Below the pieces are notes generated by a model. That model searched no databases and was not told where the DNA came from. It saw only the letters and a program-made list of their open reading frames with translations. A program made the translations under genes and the position numbers. DNA of 64,000 nt from assembly GCF_013340205.1 (NCBI RefSeq), contig NZ_BJTG01000009.1, forward strand, positions 186,001-250,000, read 5' to 3'. This DNA comes from Anaeromyxobacter diazotrophicus (GTDB taxonomy: Bacteria > Myxococcota > Myxococcia > Myxococcales > Anaeromyxobacteraceae). Positions 8,407-52,430 of this stretch are shown here, one piece after another; positions within the stretch are counted from its first letter, which is position 1; each line of letters opens with the position of its first letter.

Positions 8407-9798
8407 CTATCCGCCGGCGACGAGCGCCAGCGCCAGCTCGCCGTGGCGCCGCACCACCGGGTCGAGGTCGAACGAGGTGAGCCGCCCCTGGCGCACCCGC
8501 ACCTGGCCGTCGACGACGGTGTAGGCCGCGCCGGGCGAGGCGCACAGGAGCAGCGCGCCCACCGGGTCGTGCACGGCGGCGCCCGAGAAGGCGACGCCGC
8601 CGAGGTCGAAGAGCGCCAGGTCTGCGCACATCCCGGGCGCGAGGTGCCCGATGTCCGGGCGGCCGAGCACCTGCGCGCCGCCGCGGGTGGCGAGCGCCAG
8701 CGCGTCGCGGACGGTCATGGCGGCCGGGCCGCGGTCGCAGCCGAACGGCTCGAGCGCGAGGCCCACCCGCTGCAGGAGCAGCGCCTGCCGCGCCTCCGCC
8801 ACCATCTGCGCCCCGTCGTTGCTGGCGCTCCCGTCGACGCCCAGGCCCACCCGCACCCCCGCCCGGCGCATGGCGAGCACCGGCGCGATCCCGCTCGCGA
8901 GCCGCATGTTGCTCGACGGACAGTGCGCGACCCCGGTGCCGGTGGCCGCGAAGCGCGCCAGGCCGGCCGCGTCGAGCTTCACGCAGTGGGCGTGCCAGAC
9001 GTCCTCGCCCAGCCACCCCAGCTCCTCGGCGTACTCGGCCGGCGTGCAGCCGAACTTCTCGCGGGTGTAGGCGACGTCGTGGTCGTTCTCGGCGAGGTGC
9101 GTGTGCAGCCGCACGCCGTGCTTGCGCGCCAGCGCCGCCGAGTCGCGCATGAGCTCCCGGCTCACCGAGAAGGGCGAGCAGGGCGCGACCGCGATCTGGA
9201 GCATCGCCCCGCGGGCGCGGTCGTGGTACCGCCCGATGAGCCGCTCCGTCTCCCGCAGGACGTCGTCCGGGCGCTCCACCACCTCGTCGGGCGGGAGCCC
9301 GCCCTGACTCCGCCCCACCGTCATCGAGCCGCGGGTGGCGGTGAAGCGCATGCCGGCGGCCCGGGCGCCCTCGATGCTGTCGTCCAGCCGGACGCCGTTC
9401 GGGTAGATGTAGAGGTGGTCGCTGGTGGTGGTGCAGCCGGACAGCAGCAGCTCGGCCATCGCCACCTGGGTGGCGACGCGGATCATCTCCGGCGTGAGCC
9501 GCGCCCAGATCGGATAGAGGCCCGAGAGCCAGGAGAACAGCTCGGCGTCCTGCACCGCCCGCACCGCGCGCGTGAGCGACTGGCACATGTGGTGGTGCGT
9601 GTTGACGAGGCCCGGCAGGACCAGGTGGCCGCGCGCGTCGATGACCTCGTCGGCGGTGCGCGGCAGGCTGGCGGCCGGCCCGACCGCCTCGATCACGCCG
9701 TCGCGGGCGAGGAGCGAGGCGTCCGTGAGCTCGCGGCGCGCGTCGTCGAAGGTGGCGATGACGGCGGCGTCGCGGATGAGGAGGGTCTTCGAGGTCAC
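8407..9798 (-). CDS. Amidohydrolase-family deaminase, 8-oxoguanine deaminase type
   Basis: From GTG 9798 the product has 463 residues; an in-frame ATG at 9852 would add 18 untypical residues and has its best ribosome site too far away. Metal ligands are seen in NTHHHMCQSLTR, HTHLAENDHD, HAHCVKLD and the catalytic aspartate of VDGSASNDG. This is the COG0402 aminohydrolase subgroup that includes 8-oxoguanine deaminase and the triazine hydrolases. The NTHHH...LTR version fits 8-oxoguanine deaminase best, which would turn 8-oxoguanine into urate and feed the purine route encoded alongside. Isoguanine or another purine is an alternative substrate. It diverges from the deaminase-gpt-mocA-xdhC operon. 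Confidence 0.8.
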   Translation of the reverse strand: MTSKTLLIRDAAVIATFDDARRELTDASLLARDGVIEAVGPAASLPRTADEVIDARGHLVLPGLVNTHHHMCQSLTRAVRAVQDAELFSWLSGLYPIWARLTPEMIRVATQVAMAELLLSGCTTTSDHLYIYPNGVRLDDSIEGARAAGMRFTATRGSMTVGRSQGGLPPDEVVERPDDVLRETERLIGRYHDRARGAMLQIAVAPCSPFSVSRELMRDSAALARKHGVRLHTHLAENDHDVAYTREKFGCTPAEYAEELGWLGEDVWHAHCVKLDAAGLARFAATGTGVAHCPSSNMRLASGIAPVLAMRRAGVRVGLGVDGSASNDGAQMVAEARQALLLQRVGLALEPFGCDRGPAAMTVRDALALATRGGAQVLGRPDIGHLAPGMCADLALFDLGGVAFSGAAVHDPVGALLLCASPGAAYTVVDGQVRVRQGRLTSFDLDPVVRRHGELALALVAGG

Positions 9799-9896
9799 GG
9801 GAGCGTGCGGTCCGGGGGGAGGCGTGTGGTAGCTTCCCGCGGATATTAGCATCCAGGCGCAACCGCCTCCGCGCGACCGGAGCTCGACCCCACCCG

Positions 9897-10436: not shown

Positions 10437-10964
10437 ATGTCCACCGAGCCCAAGCCCCCCGCCACCGCCAACCCGTACCGGGACGAGATCGTCATCTCGT
10501 GGCCCGAGCTGCACCGCGACGCGCGCTACCTCTCCCACGTGCTGCACCAGCTCGGCGAGTGGAAGGGGATCATCGCCATCACCCGCGGCGGGCTCGTGCC
10601 GGCGGCGCTGGTGGCGCGCGAGCTCGACATCCGCCTCATCGACACGGTGTGCGTGGTGAGCTACGGCGCGGCCGAGGGCGGCGGCGCCGAGCAGCGCCAG
10701 GGCGAGCTGCGCTGGCTGAAGACCGTCTCCGGCGACGGCGCCGGCTGGCTCCTCATCGACGACCTGGTCGACACCGGCCGCACCGCCAAGGCGGTCCGGG
10801 AGACCTTGCCCAAGGCGCACTTCGCCGCGCTCTACGCCAAGCCGCTCGGGCGGCCGGTGGTGGACACCTTCGTGAAGGAGTTCAAGCAGGAGAAGTGGAT
10901 CTACTTCCCGTGGGACATCGACTACCAGTTCGTCTCGCCCATCAAGAGCCGTCGCGGGAAGTGA
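10437..10964 (+). CDS. gpt: Xanthine (guanine) phosphoribosyltransferase
   Basis: The product has 175 residues. The PRPP loop LLIDDLVDTGRTAKAV (about 104-119) and the early ITRGGLVPA loop (about 46-54) match bacterial XGPRT closely, as does the C-terminal WIYFPWDIDYQF. It converts xanthine or guanine with PRPP to XMP or GMP in the cytoplasm, which is the salvage branch competing with breakdown. The stop overlaps the mocA GTG (GTGA), so the two are translationally coupled. Confidence 0.93.
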   Translation: MSTEPKPPATANPYRDEIVISWPELHRDARYLSHVLHQLGEWKGIIAITRGGLVPAALVARELDIRLIDTVCVVSYGAAEGGGAEQRQGELRWLKTVSGDGAGWLLIDDLVDTGRTAKAVRETLPKAHFAALYAKPLGRPVVDTFVKEFKQEKWIYFPWDIDYQFVSPIKSRRGK

Positions 10965-11563
10965 GCGTCGCGGCCGTCCTCCTGGCGGCCGGCGCCTCCT
11001 CCCGCCTGGGCGAGAACAAGCTGCTCGCGCCCTTCGCCGGCGAGCCGCTGCTGCGGCGCGCGGCGCGCGCGGCGCTCGACGCCCGCCTCGACCCGGTGCT
11101 GGTGGTGGTCGGCCACGAGGCGGCGCGCGCCGAGGAGGCGCTCGCCGGCCTGGCCTGCCGGGCGGTGCCGAACCCGCGCCACGCCGCCGGGATGAACACC
11201 TCGCTCGACGCCGGGCTGGCGGCGGTCCCGCCGGACGCCGAGGCGGCGGTGGTGCTGCTCGCGGACATGCCCTTCGTCGGCGCCGGGATGATCCAGGCGC
11301 TGGTGGCGCGCTTCCGCGAGACCGGCGCGCCGCTCGTGGCCTCCCGCTACGGCGCGGTGCTCGCGCCGCCGACCCTCTACGCCCGCGCGCTCTTCCCCGA
11401 GCTGCGCGGAGGCGCGGGCGACGGGCGGGGCCGCGAGGTGACGCGCCGCCACCTCGCCGAGGCGGCCTTCGCCGACTGGCCGGCCGAGGCGCTCGCCGAC
11501 GTGGACGTGGCGGAGGATCTGGCGGCGGCGCGGGCGCGGCTGGGCGAGGAGGAGCCCCGGTGA
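10961..11563 (+). CDS. mocA: MobA/MocA-type molybdenum cofactor nucleotidyltransferase
   Basis: GTG start, 200 residues. The N-terminal nucleotide-binding motif LLAAGASSRLGENKLLAPF and LLADMPFVG with a metal-binding Asp define the MocA/YgfJ family, which adds CMP to Mo-molybdopterin to give the cytosine dinucleotide form used by xanthine-oxidase-type enzymes. Its place between gpt and an XdhC-type factor, and near two Mo hydroxylases, supports a role in maturing those enzymes. The short overlaps on both sides (GTGA) show one transcript. I separate it from MobA (GMP transfer) by context only. Confidence 0.88.
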   Translation: MSVAAVLLAAGASSRLGENKLLAPFAGEPLLRRAARAALDARLDPVLVVVGHEAARAEEALAGLACRAVPNPRHAAGMNTSLDAGLAAVPPDAEAAVVLLADMPFVGAGMIQALVARFRETGAPLVASRYGAVLAPPTLYARALFPELRGGAGDGRGREVTRRHLAEAAFADWPAEALADVDVAEDLAAARARLGEEEPR

Positions 11564-12576
11564 GCGAGCAGGCGGAGGTGCTGGAGCGGCTGGCGGCCTG
11601 GGCGGACGCGGGGCTGGGCGTGGCGCTGGCAGCGGTGATGCGCACCTGGGGCTCGGCGCCGCGCCGGCCGGGCAGCCTGCTGGGTGTGAACGCCCGCGGG
11701 GAGTTCGTGGGCTCGGTCTCGGGCGGCTGCGTCGAGGCGGCCGTCATCGAGGCCGCGCTGGAGGTCATCGCCGGCGGAGGACCGCCGCGCGTCCTCGACT
11801 ACCGGGTGACGGACGAGCGGGCCTGGCAGGTCGGGCTCGCCTGCGGCGGCGCGCTGCAGGTGTACGTCGAGCGGCCCGGGCGAGAGCTCGTGCGCGAGCT
11901 GCTCGCCGCGCTCGCGGCGAAGGAGCCGGTGGTGCTCGCGACGGAGGTCGCCACCGGCGCGCCGCGCCTCGTCCGGCCGCACGCCCCCGACCCCGGCCTC
12001 GACCCCGCGCTAGCGCAGGCGGCGCGCGAGGCGTCGCTGCGCGATCGCACCGGGGTGGTGGAGACGCCCGGCGGGGCGCTCTTCCTGCGCGCGTTCAATC
12101 CGCCGGTGCGCGTCGTCCTGGTGGGCGCGGTGCAGATCGCGCAGGCGCTCGCGCCGATGGCGCGCCTCGCCGGCTACGACGTGCTCGTGATCGACCCCCG
12201 CCGCGCCTTCGCCACCGAGGAGCGCTTCCCCGGGACGGCGCTGGCCGTCGAGTGGCCGGACGCCGCGCTCGCGCGCGCCGGCCTCGACCGGCACACGGCG
12301 GTGGTCACGCTCACCCACGACCCCAAGCTCGACGACCCCGCGCTCGCCGCCGCCCTGCGATCCGAGGCGTTCTACGTGGGCTGCCTGGGGAGCGCGCGCA
12401 CCCAGGCCGGACGCCTGGAGCGGCTCGCGGCCATGGGGTTCGGCCCGGGCGACCTGGCGCGGCTGCGCGGTCCCGTCGGGCTCCCCATCGGCGCGGTATC
12501 CCCCGGCGAGATCGCGGTCTCCATCCTGGCGCAGCTCGTGGCGGCGCTGCGGCGGCCGGAGCCTCCGGCGACGTAG
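11560..12576 (+). CDS. XdhC/CoxI-family molybdenum hydroxylase maturation factor (first copy)
   Basis: The product has 338 residues. The N-terminal XdhC/CoxI domain has TWGSAPRRPGSLLGV, SGGCVEAAV and GLACGGALQVYVE (about 30-110). The C-terminal Rossmann half has VVLVGAVQIAQALAPMA, VVTLTHDPKLDD and YVGCLGSARTQAGR, ending in the conserved GLPIGAVSPGEIAVSILAQL. XdhC proteins hold the sulfurated cofactor and deliver it to xanthine-oxidase-type apoenzymes. A second, shorter XdhC is at 31764 in the xdhAB operon. This copy, coupled to mocA, probably serves the XdhD-like enzyme at 15247. The end of the operon falls into a repeat-rich non-coding stretch. Confidence 0.9.
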   Translation: MSEQAEVLERLAAWADAGLGVALAAVMRTWGSAPRRPGSLLGVNARGEFVGSVSGGCVEAAVIEAALEVIAGGGPPRVLDYRVTDERAWQVGLACGGALQVYVERPGRELVRELLAALAAKEPVVLATEVATGAPRLVRPHAPDPGLDPALAQAAREASLRDRTGVVETPGGALFLRAFNPPVRVVLVGAVQIAQALAPMARLAGYDVLVIDPRRAFATEERFPGTALAVEWPDAALARAGLDRHTAVVTLTHDPKLDDPALAAALRSEAFYVGCLGSARTQAGRLERLAAMGFGPGDLARLRGPVGLPIGAVSPGEIAVSILAQLVAALRRPEPPAT

Positions 12577-12838: not shown

Positions 12839-12912
12839 GCCGCCCGTCCGCGGCCGGTTCCGTCCGCAGGGCGGTCGCGGGGCGGGGCGGGCGCGGGCGC
12901 GGGCGCGGGCGC

Positions 12913-12981
12913 GATCGAGGTCGCGGTCGCGGTCGCGGTCGCGGTCGAGGTCGAGGTCGAGGTCGTCGCAGTCGCGGTCGA
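12913..12981. repeat. Hexanucleotide tandem repeat (GGTCGC/GGTCGA)
   Basis: About eight in-register units run from 12913 to 12966: GATCGA, then four GGTCGC, three GGTCGA and one GGTCGT. An imperfect unit follows to 12981, after a GGGCGC-rich lead-in at 12889-12912. The array ends 15 bases before the stop of the leftward ygfK-like gene. Confidence 0.8.
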
Positions 12982-12996: not shown

Positions 12997-15042
12997 TCAG
13001 GCAGGCTGCGCCAGCGCCGCGCTCACGTAGTTCACGGCGCCGGGGGCGGTCACGCCGGCCCGCAGGAGCTCCATGATCCGGAGCGGCGCGAGGTCCACCG
13101 GGCCCGCGGCCTGGCCCTCGGCGGTGCGGGCCGGATCGGCGAGGTCGAGGGCGAGGTCGAAGCCGTCGCCGCGGTAGCGCACCCGCGCCCCGCCGCTCTC
13201 GACCACGTAGGCGCGGCCGCCGAGGCGGCCGTGCATGCGGAGGCCGCCCGGCATCGGTTCGAGCGCGAAGCCGTCGAGGCCGGCGGCGGCCTCCCAGGCG
13301 GCCACGCTGCCGAAGAAGCGCGGCTTCACGACGTAGGGGCCGCCGTCCTCCGGGCACATGACGTCGCAGTTCCCGCATTCGTTGCAGGCGTCGGCGAAGT
13401 TCGCGATCTGCCGCGGCTTCGCGAGCGAGAGGACTCCGGCCGGCTCGGCCCGGAAGCCGCCCGCGATCGGCACGAGCCGCTCGAGCGCCACCTCGCCGCG
13501 CGGGACCGGGATGGTGAAGTTCGCGTCGTTGGGGCAGACCGGGATGCACTTGTCGCAGGTGAGGCAGTCGAAGAGCGCGAGCTGGCTGCCGACCTTCTTC
13601 GGCGGGGTGCTGTTCCGCGGCAGCGCGTAGCGGGGGTCCGCGAGCACGCGCTCGCAGTAGGTCTCGGTGTCGAGGAGCCGCGCCGCGGAGACCCAGCGCG
13701 GGAAGCCCTCCCCGGCCGCGGCGCGGAGGTCCGCGCCGCTCGCGAGCGCGGTGCGGCAGGCCGCAGCGGCCTCGGCCGGGAGCCCTGCCTGCGCCAGCGC
13801 CGCGGCGGCATGCCCGTAGGCGAGGAGGGTGAAGGTGTCGAGATCGCGCGCCCCCACCGCGTCCATCCGGCGCGAGAGCTCCGCGAAGTAGCCCCGGGCG
13901 CGGCCGTACCCGGCCGGCTTCAGGAGGTCGCTGCAGACGCTCACGGGCTTGAGGCCCAGGGCGACCGCGTCGGCGAAGTTGCCGGCGTCGATCCCGGCCG
14001 AGAAGGAGATGGGGAAGCGGTCGCCGAAGGCGCGGCGGAAGCGACGCACGAGCGCCATCGCCAGCACGTGCAGCGGCGGGCCGGAGAGGTACATCTCCTT
14101 CTCGGTCGGCGGGAAGAAGCTGCGGTGGTTCCGGACGAGCAGCGTGTTGGTGAACTTCACGCCGAAGCCGCGGCCGGCCTCCGCCGCGACCGCCCCGAGC
14201 CGCTCCACGAACCCCACCACCTGCTCCCACTTCGCGTCCTTCTCGAACGCGCCCTCCGGCACCACCAGCTCCCGGTAGCCGAGCCGCTCGTGGAGGATGG
14301 AGCTCACGCCCTCCTCACCGAGGAGGGTGGGGTTGAGCTTCACCACCACGTGCAGCCCCACCTCCCGCAGGAGGAAGGCCGCGATGCGCTCGATCTCGTC
14401 CGGCGGGCAGCCGTGGAAGGTGGAGAGGGTGAGGGTGTCCGAGACGCGGGTGGTGAAGGGCAGGTCGCGCAGGTGCGCCCACGGCGCGGGGATCTGCGCG
14501 CGCAGCCGCTCCACGATGGGGCGGGCGTCGAGGAGGCCCGCCATGAAGGCGCGCACCCGCTCCGAGCGGATGCCCGCCAGGTCGTAGCCGACGCTCATGT
14601 CGAAGACGGTGTCGCCGAAGCCGGGCGCCATCCCCGAGGCCTTCAGCAGCTCGATGAGCATCGACGCCTTCACGTACTCCTCGAGCGACTGCTCGAGCGA
14701 CAGCTCCTGCGACCACTCCACGTTGAAGCCGACGGTATGCAGGTCGATGCAAGGCCGGGGGATGACGAGGTCGTCCTTCACCTGGACGGTCTTGAGCTCC
14801 AGCACGCGGCTGCCGGCGAGCCAGGCGAGGACGAGGTTCTGGGCGAGCTGGGTATGGGGGCCGGCCGCGGGCCCGAACGGGCTCGAGGCGCGGTGGCCGT
14901 GGATGGACACCGACAGGTCGCGCGCCGGGTCGCCCAGGACGAAGCGCGCCGCGGGGAGGTCGAAGGCGGCCTGCTTCTCGGCGAGCTCGCGGAAGAGGCG
15001 CGCGACCAGCACGCCGAACGGGATGGGGGTCAGCTCGGCCAT
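12997..15042 (-). CDS. ygfK: YgfK-like iron-sulfur flavoprotein (dihydroorotate-dehydrogenase-like), short form
   Basis: The product has 681 residues. The N-terminus (PIPFGVLVARLFRE ... GPAAGPHTQLAQN ... ELKTVQVKDDL ... CIDLHTVGFNVEWSQE) matches E. coli YgfK nearly motif for motif. A DHOD-like barrel runs to about residue 440, then two ferredoxin-type cysteine groups: CLTCDKCIPVCPND (about 500-513) and CNECGNCDVMCPEDGG. E. coli YgfK, as I recall, continues for some 350 residues more with an FAD/NADPH unit; here the chain ends soon after the second cluster, so an electron partner must be supplied elsewhere. YgfK is part of the anaerobic purine-degradation gene set and is thought to act with XdhD on a purine or urate ring. 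It diverges from the XdhD-like gene. Confidence 0.85.
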   Translation of the reverse strand: MAELTPIPFGVLVARLFRELAEKQAAFDLPAARFVLGDPARDLSVSIHGHRASSPFGPAAGPHTQLAQNLVLAWLAGSRVLELKTVQVKDDLVIPRPCIDLHTVGFNVEWSQELSLEQSLEEYVKASMLIELLKASGMAPGFGDTVFDMSVGYDLAGIRSERVRAFMAGLLDARPIVERLRAQIPAPWAHLRDLPFTTRVSDTLTLSTFHGCPPDEIERIAAFLLREVGLHVVVKLNPTLLGEEGVSSILHERLGYRELVVPEGAFEKDAKWEQVVGFVERLGAVAAEAGRGFGVKFTNTLLVRNHRSFFPPTEKEMYLSGPPLHVLAMALVRRFRRAFGDRFPISFSAGIDAGNFADAVALGLKPVSVCSDLLKPAGYGRARGYFAELSRRMDAVGARDLDTFTLLAYGHAAAALAQAGLPAEAAAACRTALASGADLRAAAGEGFPRWVSAARLLDTETYCERVLADPRYALPRNSTPPKKVGSQLALFDCLTCDKCIPVCPNDANFTIPVPRGEVALERLVPIAGGFRAEPAGVLSLAKPRQIANFADACNECGNCDVMCPEDGGPYVVKPRFFGSVAAWEAAAGLDGFALEPMPGGLRMHGRLGGRAYVVESGGARVRYRGDGFDLALDLADPARTAEGQAAGPVDLAPLRIMELLRAGVTAPGAVNYVSAALAQPA

Positions 15043-15246
15043 GCTCGATCGGTCGAAAGGGTGAGCGGCGATCCTGCCGCAGCACCCTCTGCCGAAGCAA
15101 CTGGACTCATCGCGTCCGATTGATCGGCGCGCGCGGCTGCGTTACCGTCCAGAGCGTAACCGCCCCGTTCGACGCGCCTTTTTCACGAGGAGCGCGCGCC
15201 GGGGCGCCCCGCCCCCGGGGCCGCCGCCACGAGAGGCCGCACGCCG
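15043..15246. promoter_or_regulatory. Divergent promoter region of ygfK-like and xdhD-like genes
   Basis: These 204 bases drive two functionally linked operons in opposite directions. They include the spaced inverted repeat GTTAC (15141-15145) - 10 bases - GTAAC (15156-15160), which looks like a dimeric regulator site, plus a T-tract at 15179-15183. The regulator itself is not evident in the window. Confidence 0.45.
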
Positions 15247-17886
<2,640 letters not shown>

Positions 17887-17905: not shown

Positions 17906-19138
17906 ATGACGAACGACCCGAGGATCGACGGCGAGCGCCTCTCGCGGCGCCTGGCGGAGCTGGCCCGGCACGGCGCGCTCCCCGGCGGCGGCGTGTGCCG
18001 GCTCGCGCTCACCGACGAGGACAAGGCGGGCCGCGACCAGGTGGTGCGCTGGATGCGCGAGCTGGGGCTCACCGTCACCGTCGACGGCATCGGCAACGCG
18101 GTCGGGATCCGGAAGGGCCAGGAGGACGGCCCGCCCGTCATGGTGGGGAGCCACATCGACACCGTCCGCACCGGCGGGCCCTACGACGGCAACCTGGGCG
18201 TCATGGCCGGGCTCGAGGTGGTCGCGGCGCTGAACGACGCGAAGGTCGTCACGCGACGGCCGCTGGCGGTGGCCTTCTTCACCAACGAGGAGGGCTCGCG
18301 CTTCCAGCCGGACATGATGGGGAGCCTGGTGTACGCCGGCGCCCTGCCGCTCGAGCGGGCGCTCGCCACGGTGGGCATCGACGGCACGACGGTGCGGGAG
18401 AACCTGGCGCGCATCGGCTACGCCGGGGACGGCCCGCTGGGCGGGCCCGGCAAGGTCCACGCCTACGTCGAGCTGCACGTGGAGCAGGGCCCGGTGCTCG
18501 AGGAGGAGGGCTTCACCATCGGCGCGGTGGAGGGGGTGCAGGGCATCTCCTGGACCGAGCTCACCCTCACCGGCCAGTCGAACCACGCCGGCACCACGCC
18601 CATGCGGCTCCGCCACGACGCGGGCTACGTCGCGGCGGAGATCGCCGTCTTCGCCCGCCGGCTGGCGCGCGAGCTCGGCGGCCACCAGGTGGCGACGGTG
18701 GGGGCGCTCACGCTCTTCCCGAACCTCGTCAACGTGGTGGCGAACCGGGTGGTGATGACGGTGGACCTGCGCAACACCGACGAGGCGCGGCTCCAGGAGG
18801 CGGAGCGCCGCCTGTTCGCCTTCGTCGAGGAGACCGCCGCGGCCGAGGGGGTGAAGGTCGCGCGCCGCTCGCTGGCGCGGTTCAAGCCGGTGGCCTTCGC
18901 GCCGGCGCTGGTGGCGCGGGTGGAGGCGATCGCGAAGGAGCTGCGCCTGTCCGTGAAGCGCCTGCCGAGCGGGGCCGGGCACGACGCGCAGATCCTGGCC
19001 GCCGTCTGCCCCGCCTGCATGATCTTCGTCCCGAGCGTGAAGGGCGTGAGCCACAACGTGGAGGAGTTCACGAAGCCGGCCGACCTCGCCGCCGGGGCCG
19101 AGGTGCTGCTCCGGCTCGTCCTCGAGCTGGCGCGGTGA
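17906..19138 (+). CDS. M20-family amidohydrolase, allantoate amidohydrolase / N-carbamoylase type
   Basis: The product has 410 residues. Zinc and catalytic residues are visible in [20 protein letters not shown] (about 79-98), [10 protein letters not shown] (about 125) and [14 protein letters not shown] (about 190), and near the C-terminus [12 protein letters not shown] and [10 protein letters not shown]. The lid motif [15 protein letters not shown] marks the AllC/HyuC/beta-ureidopropionase branch. The enzyme removes a carbamoyl or ureido group from a small acid, giving CO2 and ammonia. In this cluster it could act after ring opening by the hydantoinase at 22391. It overlaps the next gene by 4 bases. 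Exact substrate (allantoate, ureidoglycine, N-carbamoyl amino acid or 2,3-diureidopropionate) is undecided. Confidence 0.88.
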
Positions 19139-20781
19139 GCCGCCAGCTCGTCCGCGACGCGCTCCTCGTCCTCGGCGACGGCCAGACCGCGCCGTTCGCC
19201 GGCGACGCCCTCCTCGACGGCGACCGCGTGGCGCGGCTGGGCTCGGTCTCGCGCTCGGAGGCGCTCGGCGCCGAGGTGATCGAGGCGCGCGGCCGCGCGC
19301 TCGCGCCGAGCTTCGTCGACACCCACAACCACGGCGCGCTGGGCGGCACGGCGCTGGGCGAGCACGGGCTCCCCCGCGCCTGCGAGCTCGCGCTGCGCGG
19401 CGGGGTGACGAAGCGCATCTGCGGGGTGGACGGGCTCTCGCCGGCCCCGGTGACCGAGGCGCAGCGCTCGCAGTACGCCGCGCAGCTGAAGCCGCTCGAC
19501 GGCGCCGTCGACGGGCCCTGGACCTGGAGCTCGGTGGCCGAGTTCCTCGCCTGGCACCGCGGCCGGTCCGTCACCGACCTGGGCCTCCACCTGGGCCACT
19601 CGGCGGTGCGGCGGGTGGTGATGCACAACCTGGCCCGCGTCGCCACCGACGCGGAGATCGCCGCCATGGCCGAGGTGGTGCGGCGGGAGGCGCCCGCCAC
19701 GCTCGGCCTCTCCACCGGCCTCGTCTACAACCCGGCCGTCTACTGCGACCAGCGCGAGCTGACGGCGCTCGTCCGCGCCTTCAACGAGGTGAAGCCGGGC
19801 GCGCTCTTCCCGCACCTGCGCTCCGAGAGCGACAACGTGGTGGCGAGCCTCAAGGAGGTCGTCGCGGCGGCGGTGGACGGGGGCGGCGGGTACTGCAACG
19901 AGCACTCGAAGATCGCGGGCGCCGACAACTACGCCAAGATCGGGGAGCTCGAGGCCGTGCTGCGCGACGCCGCCTCGCTCGTCCCGACCATGGAGAACAT
20001 GTACCCGTACACCGCCGGCTCGACCACCGGCGACGCGATCTTCCCGCCCGAGGCGCGGGCCGGCTCGCGCGGCGAGTTCCTGGCGCGGCTCCGCGACCCG
20101 GGGGCGCGGCGCGCGCTGGCGGACAAGATGCGCCACGACTCCCGCAGCTGGGACAACTTCATCCACTTCTGCGGCGGCCTGGGTGGCATCCAGCTCGCCG
20201 GGGTGAAGCCCGGCGTGGGCGACGCGTTCCTGGGCAAGCGCCTCGCGGACGTGGCGCGCGCCGCCGGGGCCGCCGACCCCGCCTCGGACGCGGCCTACGA
20301 GGCGGTGTTCGACTTCTTCGTCGCGAACGAGGGCGAGGTGGCCATCATCAGCCACTACGGGAACGAGGCCACCGTCGAGCGGTTCTTCCGCCGGCCCACC
20401 ATGGCGCTCTGCACCGACGGCCTCATGCCCGGGCCCGGGCAGAAGCCGCACCCGCGGGCGCTCGGCGCCTTCCCCAGGGCGCTGCGCATGGGGCGGGAGC
20501 TGGGGATCCCGCTCGAGCAGCTGGTCTGGCGGCTCGCCACCCTCCCCTGCCGCTTCCTCCACCTGCCGGATCCGGCGCTCCGCGAGGGCGCCGACGCGTC
20601 GCTCGTGCTCTTCGACCCGGCGACGGTGGGCGAGCGGAACGACTACCTCGACCCGCTCGTCCCGCCGGCCGGCATCGACGCCGTGTGGGTCCACGGCCAC
20701 CGCGTCCTCGACCACGGCACGTTCACGGTGCCGCGGCCGTTCCCCGGGCGCGTGCTCGCGAGCCCGGTCCGCGCGGGCTGA
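19135..20781 (+). CDS. D-aminoacylase / N-acyl-D-amino-acid deacylase family amidohydrolase
   Basis: GTG start overlapping the previous stop, 548 residues. The metal-dependent amidohydrolase barrel shows FVDTHNHG (about 60-67), [30 protein letters not shown] and [16 protein letters not shown] followed by LCTDGLMPG with the catalytic aspartate. D-aminoacylases and related ring-opening deacylases have this size and order. No D-amino-acid racemase lies nearby, whereas every other gene around belongs to purine or ureide metabolism, so a ureido or formyl intermediate is a sensible alternative substrate. This gene has no counterpart that I know in the enterobacterial ygf cluster. Confidence 0.82.
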
Positions 20782-21020
20782 AGGCCGCGAGCGATCGAAG
20801 CTCCGCGACGACCTCTCCCGACCTCCGCCGCCACGCGCCCATCTGCATACCCGATGTGCGCGGAGCCGCGGTGAGCCGCGGTCGCACCTTTCACCCTACG
20901 TCGAGATCGTCCTGTTCACGCTGGGTTGAGGTACCGCGTTCGCCTGACGCTCATTTGCCTGTCAGCCGTTCACGGGACGGAGTAGCGTCACCCTCCGTTC
21001 AGCTCACCCCGGAGGACTCC
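20782..21020. promoter_or_regulatory. Intergenic region ahead of the collagen-like gene
   Basis: 239 bases without a gene. CCGCGG-TGAG-CCGCGG at 20866-20881 can form a 6-bp hairpin and may end the upstream operon. The segment 20911-21000 is clearly less G+C-rich than its surroundings and probably carries the promoter of the collagen-like gene. The ribosome site GGAGG at 21011-21015 is strong. Confidence 0.45.
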
Positions 21021-22390: not shown

Positions 22391-23797
22391 CTACCCGATC
22401 GCGCCCTGGTACACCGGCCCGAACGGCGCCCGCGGCAGGTATCTCCCGGAGCCGGCCTCCGCCCGCAGGTCCCCGTCGGCCCAGACGTGCCGCCCGCGCG
22501 CGAGGGTGTGGACCACCACGCCGCGCACCTCCCGGCCCTCCCAGACGGAGAAGTCGGTCCGCTGGTGCTGGGTGCGGGCCGAGAGCGTCTTCGTCCGCGC
22601 CGGATCGAGCACCACCACGTCGGCGTCGGCGCCCACCTCGAGCGAGCCCTTCCGCGGCCAGAGGTTGAAGGCGCGCGCCGCGTTCGAGGACGTGAGCGCG
22701 ACGAACCGCTCCGGCGTGAGGCGCCCGCCGTTCACGCCGAGGTGCCACAGCACGTGCAGGCGATCTTCCACCCCGCCGCAGCCGTTCGGGATGCGGGTGA
22801 AGCGGTCGGCGCCGGCGCGCTTCTGGGCGGTCGTGAAGCAGCAGTGGTCCGTGCCGGTGGTGCTGAGCGCGCCCGCCTCGAGCGCCCGCCAGAGCGCCTC
22901 CTGGTGCCCCTTCGGCCGGTAGGGCGGGCTCATGACGTGCCCAGCGGCGACGTCGAAGTCGGGGTCCGCGTAGACCGAGTCGTCGATGGCGAGGAAGCCG
23001 GGCAAGGTCTCGCCGACGATCTTCACGCCGCGCTGCCGCGCCCGGCCGATGGCCTCGGCAGCCTCGGCGGCCGAGACGTGCACGACGTAGAGCGGCACGC
23101 CGACCACCTCCGCCATGGTCACCGCGCGCAGGGTGGCCTCGCCCTCCAGCTGCGGCGGCCGCGAGAGCGGGTGGCCCTCGGGCCCGGTGACGCCGCGCGC
23201 CAGGAGCTCCTGCTGGAGATACGCGATGAGCTCGCCGTTCTCGGCGTGGACCTGCGGCAGCGCGCCGAGCTCGCGGCAGCGGACGAAGCCCTCGACGATC
23301 TGCTCGTCGGGGAGCATGAGCCCGCCCTTGTAGGCGAGGAAGAACTTGTAGCTCGTGACGCCGTGCTCGCGGACGAGCGGCGCCATCTCGGCCGCGAAGC
23401 GCTCGCCCCACCACGACACCGTCATGTGGAGCCCGTAGTCGACGGTAGAGCGCGCCGCCCACGCCTGCCACTGCGCGAGCGCCTCGAGCGGGGACTGGCC
23501 GCGCTCGGGCCCGACGAAGTCGAGCAGCGTGGTCGTCCCGCCCGCGGCGGCGGCCGCCGTCCCGGAGAGGAAGTCGTCCGCGACCACCGTGCCCATGGTC
23601 GGCAGCTGCAGGTGCGTATGGGGATCGACCCCGCCCGGCAGGACGAAGCAGCCGCCCGCGTCGACGATCTCGGCGCCCGGCGACGCCTCGAGCGCCTCGC
23701 CCACCGCCGCCACCCGCCCGTCCCGGCACAGCACGTCGGCCCGCCGCTGGCCCGCCTCCGTCACCACCGTCCCGCCGCGAACCAGGGTCTCCGCCAT
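22391..23797 (-). CDS. hyuA: Dihydropyrimidinase / hydantoinase
   Basis: From ATG 23797 the product has 468 residues; another ATG sits 9 bases upstream, and the frame is open beyond without homology. Metal ligands and the carboxylated lysine are present: [41 protein letters not shown] and TGTDHCCF. The loop [14 protein letters not shown] and the [15 protein letters not shown] tail are standard for dihydropyrimidinases and D-hydantoinases. The enzyme opens cyclic ureides; in the E. coli purine cluster the equivalent is HyuA (YgeZ). It is divergent from the ssnA-led operon, with only 116 bases between them, suggesting a shared control region. Confidence 0.9.
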
Positions 23798-23913
23798 GGC
23801 CGGCATTGAAGCACGCGGCGCGTCACGGAGGTCAAGCGCGGGCTCGCGGCGAGGCCCCGGCGTGGCGCCGGCGGACGCTTGAACGGGCCCGGGCTTCCGC
23901 TGATACTGGGTCG

Positions 23914-25098
23914 TTGACTTCATCGCTCGTCATCGGCCCGGACCGCGCCGGGCGCACCGTCGCGATCGCCGGAGGTCTCGTCGTCGCCGCCGCGCCGGAG
24001 GGCGCGCGCCGCCTGCCCTGCCCGGACGGAGAGATCGGGCCGGGCGCGGTCTGCGCCCACACGCACCTCTACAGCGGGCTGGCGCGCCACGGCATGCCGC
24101 CCCCGGTCCCGCCGCCGCGGACGTTCCTCGAGATCCTCGAGCGGGTGTGGTGGCGGCTCGACCGCGCGCTCGACGCCGACGCGCTGCGGGCGGGCGCGCG
24201 CGACTACCTCGCCCGCGCGCTCCTCGCCGGCACCACGGCGGTGGTGGATCACCACGAGTCGCCCCGCTTCATCGAGGGATCGCTCGCTCTCCTGGCCGAG
24301 GAGTGCCAGCGGCTCGGGATGCGGGCCCTCCTCTGCTACGGGGCGACCGAGCGCAACTCCGGGCCGGACGAGGCGCGGCGGGGCCTCGACGAGTGCCGGC
24401 GCGTCCCCGCAGGGCCGCTCGTGCGCGGGCTGGTGGGGCTCCACGCGAGCTTCACGGTCTCGGACGCCACGGTCCGCGCCGCCGGCGAGCTCGCGCGCGA
24501 GCTCGGCACGGCCCTGCACGTCCACGTGGCCGAGGACGGCGCCGACGTGGCCGACGCGCGGGCGCGCGGCGCCGAGGGCCCGCTGCAGCGCCTCGCGGCG
24601 CTCGGCGCGCTCGCGCCGGGGTCCATCCTCGCCCACGGCGTCCACCTCGGGCCGGACGAGGTCGCCCTGGCCGACGCGCGCGGCTGCTGGTTCGTCCAGA
24701 ACCCGCGCTCCAACGAGGCGAACCGCGTCGGCTATCCGCGCGCCCTGCGGCACGCGCGGCGGGTCGCGCTCGGCACCGACGGCTTCGAGGCGGACATGGC
24801 GGTGGAGGAGGCGGCGCTCTTCCGGCTCGCCGCCGCCGCGGACGACCCGGGCCCGGCGGGCCGGCTCGCCGCCGGCCACGCGCTCGTGGCCGAGCGCTTC
24901 GGCGCGGCGCCGGAGCCGCTCGCCCCCGGGAGCCTCGGCGACGCGGTGGTGCGGGAGCGCGGCCGGGTCCGCCACGCGGTCGTGGGCGGGCGGGTGGTGG
25001 TGGAGGACGGCCGGCTGGCCTCGGAGGACCTGGAGCTCATCTCGGCGACCGCGCAGCGCGAGGCGGCGCGCCTCTGGCAGCGCATGGCGAAGATCTGA
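23914..25098 (+). CDS. ssnA: SsnA-type amidohydrolase of the anaerobic purine pathway
   Basis: I choose TTG 23914 ([10 protein letters not shown]), giving 394 residues; the open frame before it has no family resemblance. It matches E. coli SsnA in several blocks: [55 protein letters not shown], the [12 protein letters not shown] block and [10 protein letters not shown]. The zinc ligands (HTH, HVH, HG and the catalytic Asp) are complete. SsnA proteins sit in the same cluster as ygfK, xdhD and hyuA in enterobacteria and gut anaerobes and are needed there for purine or urate breakdown, probably as a ring deaminase or hydrolase. The N-terminus is shorter than in E. coli SsnA (about 440 residues). 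Confidence 0.88.
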
Positions 25099-25144: not shown

Positions 25145-27936
<2,792 letters not shown>

Positions 27937-27946
27937 GCAGGGAGCC

Positions 27947-29419
27947 ATGAGCGACCGCATCCGCTTCGTCCTCGATGGGAAGGTCCGGGAGCTCGCCGGG
28001 GTGGACCCCACCCTCACCGTCCTCCGCTGGCTGCGCGAGGTCGAGCACCGCACCGGGACGAAGGAGGGGTGCGCCGAAGGGGACTGCGGCGCCTGCACGG
28101 TGGTGCTCGCCGACCTCCGCGCCGGCGAGGTGCGCTACCGCGCCGTGAACGCCTGCCTCCTCTTCCTCCCCGCGCTCGACGGGAAGGCGCTCCTCACGGT
28201 CGAGGACGCCCGGGGCGCGGACGGCGGGCTCCACCCCGTGCAGGAGGCGATGGTGGCGTGCCACGCCTCGCAGTGCGGCTTCTGCACGCCGGGCTTCGTC
28301 ATGTCGCTCGTCGCGCTGTACGAGAGCGAGCCCGCGCCGTCGCGCCGCAGGCTCGACGACGTCCTCGCCGGGAACCTCTGCCGCTGCACCGGCTACCGCC
28401 CCATCGTCGCCGCCGCTCGGCAGGCGTACGCCTCGGGCGAGCGCTCCGCCCTGGCGGCCCAGCAGGCGCAGCTCGCCGCCCTGCTCGCGTCCGTCCGGCG
28501 CGAGGGCACCCTCGCCCTCGAGCACGGCGGGCGGCGGTTCTTCGCCCCGCGCACCCTCGCCGCGCTCGCCGAGATCCTGGAGCGCCACCCGGGCGCGCGC
28601 CTCGTCGCCGGGGGCACCGACGCCGGGCTGTGGGTGACGAAGCAGCACCGGACCCTCGAGACGCTCGTCTCGCTCGCCTCGGTCGAGGAGCTCCTCCGGG
28701 TGACCGTGACCGACACGCACCTCGAGCTCGGTGCAGCGGTGACCTACGCCGACGCCCACGCGGTGCTCGCGGCCCACCACCCCGATCTCGGCGAGCTCGT
28801 CCGGCGCATCGGCTCGCAGCAGATCCGGAACATGGGCACCCTCGCCGGCAACGTGGCGAACGCCTCGCCCATCGGCGACACCCTCCCCGCGCTCCTGGCG
28901 CTCGACGCCACCCTCGTGCTCCAGCGGGGCGGCGCCCGCCGCGAGCTCCCGCTCGACGGCTTCTTCACCGGGTACCGCCAGACGGCGCTCCGCCCGGGCG
29001 AGCTCATCGCCGCCATCCGGCTGCCGGCGCGCTCGCCGGACCGGGCGTTCCGCGCCTACAAGGTCTCGAAGCGCTTCGACCAGGACATCTCGGCGGTGTG
29101 CGGCGCCTTCGCGGTGACGCTCGCCGGCGACCGCGTGCGCGACGTGCGCCTCTGCTACGGCGGGGCCGCCGCGACGCCGCTGCGGGCCCGCGCCGCGGAG
29201 CGCGCGCTCCTCGGCCGCCCGTGGGACGAGGCGGCGGTGGCCGCCGCCCTGCCGGTGCTGGACGGCGAGCTCGCCCCCATCTCCGACGCGCGCGCCACCG
29301 CCGGCTACCGGCGCCTGGTGGCGAAGAACCTGCTCCGCAAGTTCCAGCTCGAGACCGCCCCCGGCCGCGCCGCGCCGCCGGCCGGGACGCGCGTCCTGGC
29401 CGCGCCGGAGGAGGCATGA
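27947..29419 (+). CDS. xdhA: Xanthine dehydrogenase small subunit: [2Fe-2S] plus FAD domains
   Basis: The product has 490 residues. The first cluster motif is GCAEGDCGACTVVL (about 43-56) and the second is CGFCTPGFVM with LCRCTGYRP. The FAD-binding half begins at about residue 195 with LVAGGTDAGLWVTKQ and has IGSQQIRNMGTLAGNVANASPIGD, the canonical flavin loop. It carries electrons from the Mo subunit (next gene) to NAD+ through FAD, unlike the XdhD-like enzyme at 15247, which has no FAD. Overlap of 4 bases with xdhB shows coupling. Confidence 0.95.
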   Translation: MSDRIRFVLDGKVRELAGVDPTLTVLRWLREVEHRTGTKEGCAEGDCGACTVVLADLRAGEVRYRAVNACLLFLPALDGKALLTVEDARGADGGLHPVQEAMVACHASQCGFCTPGFVMSLVALYESEPAPSRRRLDDVLAGNLCRCTGYRPIVAAARQAYASGERSALAAQQAQLAALLASVRREGTLALEHGGRRFFAPRTLAALAEILERHPGARLVAGGTDAGLWVTKQHRTLETLVSLASVEELLRVTVTDTHLELGAAVTYADAHAVLAAHHPDLGELVRRIGSQQIRNMGTLAGNVANASPIGDTLPALLALDATLVLQRGGARRELPLDGFFTGYRQTALRPGELIAAIRLPARSPDRAFRAYKVSKRFDQDISAVCGAFAVTLAGDRVRDVRLCYGGAAATPLRARAAERALLGRPWDEAAVAAALPVLDGELAPISDARATAGYRRLVAKNLLRKFQLETAPGRAAPPAGTRVLAAPEEA

Positions 29420-31767: not shown

Positions 31768-32603
31768 CGGGCTGGGTCGCGGCGCTGGCGGAGCTCGCGG
31801 CGGCGGAGCGGCCGGCCGCGCTGGTCACCCTCCTGCGCGTGGCCGGCTCGACCCCGCGCGAGCCGGGCGCGAAGCTGGTGGTGACCGCGGAGGCGCTCCA
31901 CGGCACCATCGGCGGCGGGCACCTCGAGCTCACCGCGGTGGAGACCGCCCGCGAGCTGCTGGCGGCCGCGGCCCGCGACCCCGGCGCGGCCGGCCCCCTC
32001 GTCCGCGAGCTCCAGCTCGGGCCCACGCTCGGCCAGTGCTGCGGCGGCGTGGCGACGCTCCTCTTCGAGCTCGTCCTGCCGCCCCCGTGGCAGGTGGCGG
32101 TGTTCGGGGCCGGCCACGTGGGCAAGGCGCTCGTGAAGCTGCTCGCGGACCTGCCCTGCCGCGTGAGCTGGGTCGACGCGCGCGAGGGCGAGTTCCCGGC
32201 CGCCCTGCCCGCCAGCGTCCGGCGCGTGGTGACCGACGCGCCCGAGGACGCGCTGGCCGCGCTCCCCGCGGGCGCGGACGTGGTGGTCATGACGCACAGC
32301 CACGCGCTCGACTTCCAGCTGGTGGAGGCAGCGCTGCGGCGCGGCGACCTGGGCTACGTCGGCCTCATCGGCTCTCGCACCAAGCGCGCCCGGTTCGTGA
32401 GCCGGCTCGCCAGCCGGGGCCGGACCGAGGCGGAGCTCGCGCGGCTCACCTGCCCCATCGGCCTGCCGGGGGTCGGCGGCAAGCTGCCCGCCGAGATCGC
32501 CCTCGCCGCGGCGGCGCAGCTCCTCCAGCGGAGGACCGCGGCGGCAGCGTGCCTCGAGAGCGAGCAGGCCCCTGCCCGTTCCGGAGGCAGCCACCAGGGC
32601 TGA
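31764..32603 (+). CDS. xdhC: XdhC, xanthine dehydrogenase accessory protein
   Basis: GTG start overlapping xdhB, 279 residues. It has RVAGSTPREPGAKLVV, IGGGHLELTAVE and LGPTLGQCCGGVATLLFE with the CC pair thought to bind sulfurated cofactor, then the Rossmann part VAVFGAGHVGKALVKLL and VGLIGSRTKRARF, ending in CPIGLPGVGGKLPAEIAL. It binds sulfurated molybdenum cofactor and loads it into XdhB. It is shorter than the XdhC/CoxI paralogue at 11560, and its CC motif contrasts with the single cysteine there, supporting different clients. Confidence 0.93.
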   Translation: MTGWVAALAELAAAERPAALVTLLRVAGSTPREPGAKLVVTAEALHGTIGGGHLELTAVETARELLAAAARDPGAAGPLVRELQLGPTLGQCCGGVATLLFELVLPPPWQVAVFGAGHVGKALVKLLADLPCRVSWVDAREGEFPAALPASVRRVVTDAPEDALAALPAGADVVVMTHSHALDFQLVEAALRRGDLGYVGLIGSRTKRARFVSRLASRGRTEAELARLTCPIGLPGVGGKLPAEIALAAAAQLLQRRTAAAACLESEQAPARSGGSHQG

Positions 32604-45092: not shown

Positions 45093-45995
<903 letters not shown>

Positions 45996-46035
45996 TCCGC
46001 TCGTCGTTCAACGCAGGGAGAGAAGGAGCCGCGGC

Positions 46036-47481: not shown

Positions 47482-47549
47482 CCAGCCTCAGCCTCAGCCT
47501 CGCCTCACCACCGTGGGCCAGCTTGGGCCCCGGACAGGAGACGTCCGTC

Positions 47550-49019: not shown

Positions 49020-49031
49020 GCGAGGAGCGCC

Positions 49032-51785: not shown

Positions 51786-51786
51786 A

Positions 51787-52152
51787 ATGAAGATCGCGTT
51801 CACGAGCAGCGACGGCACGCAGGTCGACCAGCACTTCGGCAAGGCCTCGCACTTCGACGTCTGGGAGGTGGGGCCGGCCGAGGCGCGCTTCCTGGAGCGG
51901 GTCCCCGCCCCCGTCCTCGTCGGCGACGAGGAGGATCGGACCACCGCCCGCGCCGAGGCGCTCGCCGGCTGCGCCGTCGTCTACACGGTGCAGATCGGCG
52001 GCCCGGCCGCGGCGAAGCTCGTCGCGCGGCGCATCCATCCCATGAAGACGCAGACCGAGGTGCCGGTGGCGGACCTCGTCGGCCGGCTCCAGGCGGTGCT
52101 GAAGGAGCGGCCACCCCCCTGGCTCAAGAAGGCGATGAACGGAGGAGCATGA
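51787..52152 (+). CDS. nifX: NifX, nitrogenase cofactor carrier
   Basis: The product has 121 residues, starting one base after the nifEN stop. MKIAFTSSDGTQVDQHFGKA is the typical NifX opening with its QHFG motif, followed by a Rossmann-like alpha/beta fold and VYTVQIGGPAAAKLV. NifX binds NifB-co and the VK-cluster intermediate and moves them between NifB and NifEN. The C-terminal 15 residues are basic (RPPPWLKKAMN). Confidence 0.93.
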   Translation: MKIAFTSSDGTQVDQHFGKASHFDVWEVGPAEARFLERVPAPVLVGDEEDRTTARAEALAGCAVVYTVQIGGPAAAKLVARRIHPMKTQTEVPVADLVGRLQAVLKERPPPWLKKAMNGGA

Positions 52153-52154
52153 CC

Positions 52155-52418
52155 ATGGCGTACCTGACCGGCCTCACGCGCGGCAAGCGCGCGTGGACCC
52201 CGAAGTTCGTGAAGTCCATCGACGACGAGCGCTGCATCGGCTGCGGCCGCTGCATCAAGATCTGCGCGCACGGCGTCCTCGCACCCAAGGAGGTGGACGA
52301 GGAGGAGTCCGCCAAGATGTTCGTCACGGTGGCGAACCCCGAGGACTGCATCGGCTGCGAGGCGTGCGGGCGCACCTGCAAGAAGGACTCGTTCACCTTC
52401 GAGGCGCTCGTCGCCTGA
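52155..52418 (+). CDS. Nif-specific 2[4Fe-4S] ferredoxin (ferredoxin III type)
   Basis: GGAGGA at 52141-52146 is 8 bases from ATG 52155 and only 2 from the ATG at 52149, which overlaps the nifX stop; I therefore choose 52155, giving 87 residues. Two cluster motifs are present: CIGCGRCIKIC (about 27-37) and CIGCEACGRTCKK (about 63-75), with an acidic loop (KEVDEEESAKM) between. Proteins of this type (FdxB) sit beside nifX in most nif clusters and supply electrons for cofactor assembly or to NifH. Confidence 0.93.
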   Translation: MAYLTGLTRGKRAWTPKFVKSIDDERCIGCGRCIKICAHGVLAPKEVDEEESAKMFVTVANPEDCIGCEACGRTCKKDSFTFEALVA

Positions 52419-52430
52419 GCAGGGGGACCG

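What the first reader, a model, noticed from the sequence alone, without database searches (positions are those of the whole stretch)
12997..17886. FAD-less molybdenum hydroxylase divergent from a YgfK that lacks its NADPH/FAD half
The XdhD-like protein has Fe-S and Mo domains but no flavin, and the YgfK-like protein has DHOD-like and ferredoxin parts but ends before the pyridine-nucleotide domain. They share a promoter region. Either they form a two-protein redox complex fed by a ferredoxin, or a third subunit is encoded elsewhere. It may be a minimal form of the purine/urate reductase system.
Basis: partly seen in the sequence, partly recalled or inferred. Interest (0 to 1): 0.65.

Follow-up and report, generated by a model that had tools for sequence, protein, structure and literature searches.

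The report
Urate-reduction enzyme pair lacking NAD(P)H modules
A soil bacterium carries a complete-looking set of genes for breaking down uric acid by reduction, in which both reducing enzymes lack the part that takes electrons from NAD(P)H; this stripped-down set turns out to be common in environmental bacteria and probably runs on ferredoxin or flavodoxin.

Summary
ORF 15247-17886(+) is a [2Fe-2S]+Mo hydroxylase without a FAD subunit; it belongs to TIGR03311 (EF2570/XdhAC type), not XdhD proper. ORF 12997-15042(-) is a YgfK (39% identity to the E. coli DHOD domain) that does not simply end early: the ~475-residue GltD-like FAD/NAD(P)H domain is missing from the middle, and the C-terminal double [4Fe-4S] domain is kept (8 cysteines invariant in 53 homologues). 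The pair sits in an apparent reductive uricolysis cluster (SsnA, HyuA, M20, UacY-like, two PLP enzymes, XDH, Mo-cofactor genes, ABC transporters). Short YgfK is widespread: 80 loci from Myxococcota, Acidobacteriota, Planctomycetota, Elusimicrobiota, SAR324, Alpha- and Betaproteobacteria. In Myxococcota it tracks the FAD-less XDH (16/17 genomes versus 3/178 others). No GltD- or YgfM-type partner is consistently encoded beside it. By precedent (ferredoxin-dependent PydAc; FAD-less D. gigas aldehyde oxidoreductase; proposed ferredoxin-linked C. difficile XdhD/UacX) the pair most likely takes electrons from ferredoxin/flavodoxin: urate to yanthine, then to dihydroyanthine. A direct complex is untested. 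Verdict: a new architectural variant of a recently described pathway; the donor is inferred, not shown.

The parts
12997..15042 (-). Short YgfK (681 aa): FMN/DHOD-like domain + linker + 2x[4Fe-4S] domain + C-terminal beta domain; no FAD/NAD(P)H domain
   Evidence: TIGR03315 387.7 bits (cut-off 835.3) to profile 4-412 and 913-963; BLASTP to E. coli YgfK 5-417 and 905-995; AF2 model pLDDT 93.5
13819..15042 (-). DHOD-like (FMN) domain, residues 1-408, with invariant HGCPP-type cysteine C212
   Evidence: 39% identity to E. coli YgfK; model residues 40-465 superpose on pig DPD 530-933, Z 26.6, 2.7 A over 290 residues; C212 invariant in 53 sequences
13309..13575 (-). Two [4Fe-4S] cluster motifs (C493 C496 C499 C503; C553 C556 C559 C563)
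   Evidence: Pfam Fer4_17 28.3 bits over cut-off; all eight Cys invariant in 53 homologues
13000..13308 (-). C-terminal beta-rich domain, residues 579-681, function unknown
   Evidence: Models; no clear PDB match
15043..15246 (.). Shared divergent intergenic region (204 bp) with an imperfect direct repeat CTGCCGCAGCA/CTGCCGAAGCA at 15074-15099 (possible operator, untested)
   Evidence: Sequence, repeat scan; divergent adjacent arrangement also in 6 of 40 homologous loci with gaps of 75-396 bp
15247..17886 (+). FAD-less molybdenum hydroxylase (879 aa; [2Fe-2S] x2 + Mo domains), TIGR03311 / EF2570-XdhAC type; inferred urate-to-yanthine reductase
   Evidence: TIGR03311 905.6 bits over cut-off; Pfam domains; closest full-length solved relative D. 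gigas aldehyde oxidoreductase 1sij
17906..19138 (+). M20 carbamoylase/allantoate-amidohydrolase family (candidate for the YgeY-type ureido hydrolysis)
   Evidence: TIGR01879 414 bits over cut-off
19135..20781 (+). Amidohydro_3 protein resembling UacY/N-acyl-D-amino-acid deacylase
   Evidence: PF07969 41 bits over cut-off 29.7; NF006560 78 bits, below cut-off
22391..23923 (-). HyuA: D-hydantoinase/dihydropyrimidinase
   Evidence: TIGR02033 563.9 bits over cut-off; 38% identity to E. coli HyuA
23806..25098 (+). SsnA-like aminohydrolase, below the SsnA model cut-off; true start probably downstream of 23806
   Evidence: TIGR03314 251 bits (cut-off 455.5); E. coli SsnA 33% identity, E 2e-60
25145..26647 (+). 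PALP1, PLP-dependent fold-type II enzyme; candidate replacement of YgeX
   Evidence: PF00291; in 34 of 80 loci, never together with YgeX
26644..27936 (+). PALP2, threonine-synthase-like PLP enzyme conserved beside PALP1
   Evidence: PF00291 120.8 bits; in 24 of 80 loci
27947..29419 (+). Xanthine dehydrogenase small subunit ([2Fe-2S] + FAD) of the separate NAD-type XDH
   Evidence: TIGR02963 640 bits over cut-off; only FAD_binding_5 in the genome
29416..31767 (+). Xanthine dehydrogenase Mo subunit (exact start not fixed)
   Evidence: TIGR02965 1252.7 bits over cut-off
31821..32525 (+). XdhC maturation factor (region matched)
   Evidence: TIGR02964 283.6 bits over cut-off
11560..12576 (+). XdhC-like maturation factor
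   Evidence: NF045664 186 bits, below cut-off; not YqeB
10961..11563 (+). MocA-like Mo-cofactor cytidylyltransferase
   Evidence: TIGR03310 117 bits, below cut-off
10437..10964 (+). Xanthine phosphoribosyltransferase
   Evidence: NF006613 235 bits over cut-off
8407..9852 (-). 8-oxoguanine deaminase family
   Evidence: NF006055 702 bits over cut-off
52149..52418 (+). nif-specific ferredoxin III: one possible low-potential carrier in the cell, no evidence that it serves this pathway
   Evidence: TIGR02936 93 bits over cut-off

Best explanation
The pair are the two reductases of a reductive uric-acid degradation pathway. The FAD-less molybdenum hydroxylase (15247-17886) would remove the C6 oxygen of urate to give 2,8-dioxopurine (yanthine); the short YgfK (12997-15042) would then dearomatise yanthine at its FMN site so that SsnA can open the ring. 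Neither protein can take electrons from NAD(P)H by itself. Electrons most likely arrive one at a time from a soluble low-potential carrier (ferredoxin or flavodoxin) at the [2Fe-2S] clusters of the hydroxylase and at the two [4Fe-4S] clusters of YgfK. Shown here: domain content, internal absence of the GltD-like domain, conservation of the ligands, gene context, co-occurrence, lack of a consistent NAD(P)H partner gene. Inferred: substrates, direction and electron donor.
For: Anatomy. Context: SsnA, HyuA, M20, UacY-like, PLP enzymes in the same 20 kb and SsnA in 40, FAD-less XDH in 40 of 80 homologous loci. In 195 Myxococcota genomes the FAD-less XDH is present in 16 of 17 short-YgfK genomes and 3 of 178 others (Fisher 1.5e-19; by genus 13/13 versus 3/77). 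GltD-type sequence lies near only 2 of 80 short YgfK genes. Precedents: PydAc, a DPD without FAD/NADPH domains, reduces uracil with reduced ferredoxin but not NAD(P)H (PMC7332683); Li et al. propose ferredoxin for the FAD-less XdhD and UacX of C. difficile (PMC12507026); the closest full-length solved relative of the hydroxylase is the FAD-less D. gigas aldehyde oxidoreductase, whose usual partner is flavodoxin (own knowledge; PMC10223205 and PMC3565340 discuss the pair, seen only as search results). No uricase PF01014 in the genome, in line with a non-oxidative route.
Against: No dedicated ferredoxin or flavodoxin gene is linked to the cluster. Co-occurrence is fully explained by membership of one pathway and does not by itself identify a shared donor. 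FAD-less XDH also occurs without short YgfK (G054, G163, G171), and E. faecalis and C. sporogenes are described with FAD-less XDH plus YgfK (PMC2276186, PMC12990295), so the two architectures are not strictly coupled. A trans-acting NAD(P)H flavoprotein cannot be excluded.
Confidence: 0.6

Rival explanations
1. A trans-acting GltD/PreT-like flavoprotein encoded elsewhere in the genome supplies NAD(P)H electrons to both proteins, as PreT does for PreA.
For: Many bacterial PydA enzymes are split into a FAD/NADPH ORF and an FMN ORF (PMC7332683); the genome has GltA/NfnB-like and PRK12771-like ORFs; the Propionivibrio locus L076 has a GltD-type ORF near the cluster, next to a pyruvate:ferredoxin oxidoreductase-like gene.
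Against: Such a gene lies near only 2 of 80 loci, one of which is a complete long YgfK. The two PRK12771-like ORFs do not follow the cluster in the family: 76-79% identical orthologues in eight relatives without it and none full-length in G044, which has it; the other occurs in G033, G034, G045 and G046, which lack it. None reaches the AegA or YgfT cut-off.
Confidence: 0.17
2. The two proteins form a stable complex and pass electrons directly between the Mo/[2Fe-2S] protein and the [4Fe-4S] domain of YgfK, for example coupling a purine oxidation to a purine reduction.
For: Conserved adjacency: divergent in 6 and co-directional in 5 of 40 loci with both genes, strong co-occurrence, and absence of a flavin entry point in both.
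Against: In 29 of 40 loci the two genes are not adjacent. Successive steps of one pathway give the same linkage. No complex could be predicted with the tools available.
Confidence: 0.08
3. The pair acts on another substrate (another purine, or selenate as the old model name 'putative selenate reductase' suggests) rather than on urate/yanthine.
For: The TIGR03315 name; 8-oxoguanine deaminase and xanthine phosphoribosyltransferase nearby; no substrate assay in this subfamily; SsnA of the window scores below its model cut-off.
Against: Neighbours match the published uricolysis steps one by one (SsnA, HyuA, YgeW/UacY/CN-hydrolase, YgeY/M20) in many phyla; E. coli XdhD and YgfK were assigned to urate and yanthine experimentally (PMC12507026).
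Confidence: 0.1
4. Gene decay: a YgfK that lost its flavin domain and is non-functional.
For: Score below half of the family cut-off.
Against: Intact 628-711 aa ORFs in 53 aligned homologues from many phyla, with invariant cofactor residues and conserved linkage.
Confidence: 0.02

Closest known systems
E. coli YgfK (Q46811; TIGR03315) of the reductive uricolysis pathway
   Same: DHOD-like FMN domain (39% identity) and C-terminal double [4Fe-4S] domain (30%), beside a Mo hydroxylase and SsnA
   Different: E. coli YgfK has about 475 extra residues in the middle (GltD-like FAD/NAD(P)H domain); the window protein scores 387.7 against a cut-off of 835.3
C. difficile FAD-less XdhD + UacX (PMC12507026)
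   Same: Same design: Mo hydroxylase without FAD subunit plus a DHOD-type reductase without FAD domain; UacY-like instead of YgeW; ferredoxin proposed
   Different: UacX is described by PF01180 (DHO_dh); the window protein does not reach PF01180 (12 bits, cut-off 27) and is a YgfK by sequence. No UacX sequence could be compared here
PydAc of Clostridium chromiireducens (PMC7332683)
   Same: DHOD-family ring reductase with FMN and [4Fe-4S] domains but no FAD/NADPH domain; shown to use reduced ferredoxin
   Different: Acts on uracil; has two ferredoxin domains (four clusters) against one in short YgfK
E. faecalis EF2570 / C. sporogenes XdhAC (TIGR03311)
   Same: Single-chain [2Fe-2S]+Mo hydroxylase without FAD; window protein is above the TIGR03311 cut-off
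   Different: Those are linked to selenium maturation (yqeB, selD); no YqeB was found in this genome
D. gigas aldehyde oxidoreductase (1SIJ/1VLB)
   Same: Closest full-length solved relative (E 2.8e-85); also lacks the flavin domain and works with a soluble carrier
   Different: Different substrate (aldehydes) and no YgfK partner

Membership tests
YgfK equivalog TIGR03315 | Whole-protein score of at least 835.3 bits over DHOD, GltD-like and Fe-S parts | tested here: not met
   387.7 bits, profile 4-412 and 913-963 only
YgfK-type DHOD domain (broader family) | N-terminal YgfK-specific DHOD-like domain | tested here: met
   39% identity over E. coli 5-417, E 1e-84 for the pair; TIGR03315 E 7.8e-116
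YgfK-type Fe-S domain (broader family) | C-terminal double [4Fe-4S] domain with eight Cys ligands | tested here: met
   Match to E. coli 905-995; eight Cys invariant in 53 sequences
UacX (C. difficile yanthine reductase) | PF01180 DHO_dh domain above gathering score, no FAD domain | tested here: not met
Selenium-dependent xanthine dehydrogenase TIGR03311 | Score above 830.45 bits over the full profile | tested here: met
   905.6 bits, profile 3-846
Selenium-dependent molybdenum hydroxylase trait | YqeB (TIGR03309) in the genome | tested here: not met
   No match in G000 while E. coli control is above cut-off; selD is present
Selenium-dependent molybdenum hydroxylase trait | Labile Se on the Mo cofactor | not testable with these tools
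   Needs biochemistry
XdhD-YgfM enzyme of E. coli | FAD_binding_5 partner subunit | tested here: not met
   Only FAD_binding_5 in the genome belongs to the separate XDH
Reductive uricolysis gene cluster | Mo hydroxylase + yanthine reductase + SsnA + HyuA + ureido-cleaving enzymes + DAP lyase | tested here: inconclusive
   All but YgeW and a recognisable YgeX present by homology; SsnA below its cut-off, UacY-like and PLP enzymes assigned by context
Ferredoxin-dependent reductase (PydAc-like) | Activity with reduced ferredoxin and not with NAD(P)H | not testable with these tools
   Only the domain content agrees

The most novel reading that the evidence does not exclude
Short YgfK defines a broad branch of yanthine reductases outside current annotation. 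It pairs with FAD-less XDH in a ferredoxin/flavodoxin-driven reductive uricolysis pathway in soil, groundwater and marine bacteria of phyla not listed in the published survey (Myxococcota, Acidobacteriota, Planctomycetota, SAR324), with interchangeable later modules: three alternatives for ureido cleavage (YgeW, UacY, CN-hydrolase) and a PLP enzyme pair in place of YgeX.
Probability: 0.5. Interest if true: 0.65.

Novelty: new variant of a known kind. Interest (0 to 1): 0.52.

Why it matters
The reductive uric-acid pathway was described in 2025 in gut bacteria, and a commentary on it names the physiological electron donor of the FAD-less first enzyme as an open question (PMC12990295). Here is a large natural set of clusters in which both reductases lack an NAD(P)H entry point, so the donor question can be tested with the same carrier on both enzymes. 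The short YgfK and its SsnA fall below the cut-offs of the models used to find the pathway (TIGR03315, PF01180, TIGR03314), so this branch may have been missed in surveys. If right, urate and purine breakdown without oxygen extends well beyond the gut.

Tried and rejected
Third subunit elsewhere: GltD-like ORFs in the genome were identified and two were traced through 24 family genomes; not co-distributed. Conserved flavoprotein neighbour: unbiased clustering of ORFs in 80 loci found none; an 8-locus cluster beside YgfK was a Ser/Thr kinase read from its sequence, and SAR324 neighbours were a secretin and LpxK. Gene decay: rejected. Sigma-54 promoters as for E. coli YgeV: 7 matches, 6.9 expected by chance. 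Riboswitch (for example the xanthine-sensing class, PMC7373994): no Rfam family reached its gathering score in the window. Selenium dependence: not supported, no YqeB. Known fold for the C-terminal beta domain: no convincing match; best VIA Z 3.8 (Polo-box), Fe-S part weakly like PsaC, so it stays undefined. Trees: both builds included one wrong-strand row of mine (L034, then L032), which sits alone on a branch of length about 10 and should be ignored; apart from it the ten true long forms make one clade (100/99), and the direction of change (domain gained or lost) is not resolved because there is no outgroup. A complex prediction was not possible with single-chain folding only.

Full report
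Setting. The window is G000:C9:186001-250000 of a 4.83 Mb, 74% GC genome; its nearest relative carrying the cluster is an Anaeromyxobacter MAG. Gene calling by GC3 supports both ORFs of the finding.

The hydroxylase. ORF 15247-17886(+) has two [2Fe-2S] domains and the Mo domains, no FAD_binding_5. It is above the cut-off of TIGR03311 and far below that of the XdhD-type model TIGR03313. The only FAD_binding_5 match of the genome is in the separate XDH small subunit at 27947-29419, so no free YgfM-like subunit was found. Its closest full-length solved relative is the FAD-less D. gigas aldehyde oxidoreductase. The model name says 'selenium-dependent', but YqeB, which C. difficile needs for growth on urate and xanthine (PMC11448449), is not found in this genome; selD is present. 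I therefore do not call it selenium-dependent.

The reductase. ORF 12997-15042(-) matches the YgfK model at 4-412 and 913-963 of 1012 positions and E. coli YgfK at 5-417 and 905-995. The GltD-like FAD/NAD(P)H domain between these is absent and replaced by a linker of 41-108 residues in 53 homologues. All eight [4Fe-4S] cysteines and C212 are invariant. The AlphaFold model is confident (pLDDT 93.5); residues 40-465 superpose on the FMN domain of pig dihydropyrimidine dehydrogenase (Z 26.6). The C-terminal beta domain has no clear match. The protein misses the cut-offs of both TIGR03315 and PF01180, and the SsnA misses that of TIGR03314. Li et al. surveyed with SsnA IPR017700, YgfK IPR017701 and UacX PF01180, so such loci could easily escape that survey (inference).

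Cluster. Around the pair lie an 8-oxoguanine deaminase, a deaminase, xanthine phosphoribosyltransferase, MocA-like and XdhC-like proteins, an M20 carbamoylase, a UacY-like Amidohydro_3, HyuA, SsnA, two PLP enzymes, a complete XDH with XdhC, and BMP-type ABC transporter genes. This follows the published pathway urate - yanthine - dihydroyanthine - ureidomethylhydantoin - diureidopropionate - diaminopropionate - pyruvate (PMC12507026, PMC12990295), most like the C. difficile form. No uricase PF01014 was found; other urate oxidases were not searched.

Distribution. In 195 Myxococcota genomes 17 have short YgfK and 12 have long YgfK (G107 both). FAD-less XDH over 750 bits occurs in 16 of the 17 and in 3 of the other 178 (Fisher 1.5e-19; by genus 13/13 against 3/77, 3.4e-13), against 2 of 12 long-YgfK genomes (p 0.33). 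These tests ignore deeper phylogeny. A scan of one genome per species returned its 80 best loci, all with a short YgfK, from seven or more phylum-level groups; the list is ranked by similarity, so it gives breadth, not frequency. In these loci FAD-less XDH is present in 40, SsnA in 40, PALP1 in 34, M20 in 27, a CN-hydrolase in 22, YgeW in 17, UacY in 7. GltD-type sequence is near only two: a tandem long+short YgfK in L101 and a separate GltD-type ORF in L076 beside a pyruvate:ferredoxin oxidoreductase-like gene. A FAD-subunit-type match lies in 5 of the 40 loci with FAD-less XDH; in four it sits with another XDH or at a distance, and one (L063) is probably a match to the hydroxylase's own Fe-S part.

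Origin. In the DHOD tree the window protein groups with Alpha- and Betaproteobacterial sequences (99/100 for the set of eight) and away from most Myxococcota, and only 2 of 24 family genomes carry it; this suggests horizontal transfer. The ten valid long forms are one clade. Each tree contains one faulty row of mine, see Tried and rejected.

Mechanism. Neither protein has a known NAD(P)H site. PydAc shows that a DHOD-family ring reductase without FAD/NADPH domains can take electrons from reduced ferredoxin and not from NAD(P)H (PMC7332683). Li et al. propose the same for C. difficile XdhD and UacX and note that yanthine reduction looks thermodynamically unfavourable and may need coupling to SsnA; a low-potential donor would help (inference). 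The donor of FAD-less XdhAC is stated to be unknown. I commit to a ferredoxin/flavodoxin-fed pair of sequential reductases, about 60%, with a trans NAD(P)H flavoprotein as the main rival. A direct complex was not testable.

Noticed in passing
window 25145-27936: Two PLP-dependent enzymes (PALP1 cysteine-synthase-like, PALP2 threonine-synthase-like) are conserved beside short YgfK (34 and 24 of 80 loci) and never occur with YgeX in those loci; candidate non-orthologous diaminopropionate ammonia-lyase.
   Followed up: partly
L115:13467-14426 and 21 other loci: A CN_hydrolase (nitrilase superfamily) gene appears in 22 of 80 loci and is nearly exclusive with YgeW (2 shared) and UacY (0 shared): a possible third way to cleave a ureido group in the pathway.
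   Followed up: partly
L101:7043-12851: A Thermoanaerobaculia contig carries a long YgfK (1194 aa) directly followed by a short YgfK (686 aa), downstream of SsnA; G107 also has both forms.
   Followed up: partly
window 45099-52769: nif genes: nifH, nifD, a NifEN fusion (917 aa), nifX, nif ferredoxin III, nifW. A nitrogen-fixation locus lies about 15 kb from the purine cluster.
   Followed up: partly
window 20685-22331: A collagen-repeat protein with a TLDc domain sits between the UacY-like and HyuA genes.
   Followed up: no
window 12865-12980: A tandem repeat of period 6 (GCGGTC, 18 copies) lies just downstream of the ygfK stop codon.
   Followed up: no
L138 (G000:C2:35154-36080): The selD match in this genome contains one in-frame TGA, as expected for a selenocysteine-containing SelD.
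   Followed up: no
window 15074-15099: Imperfect direct repeat CTGCCGCAGCA/CTGCCGAAGCA in the divergent promoter region, a possible operator.
   Followed up: no
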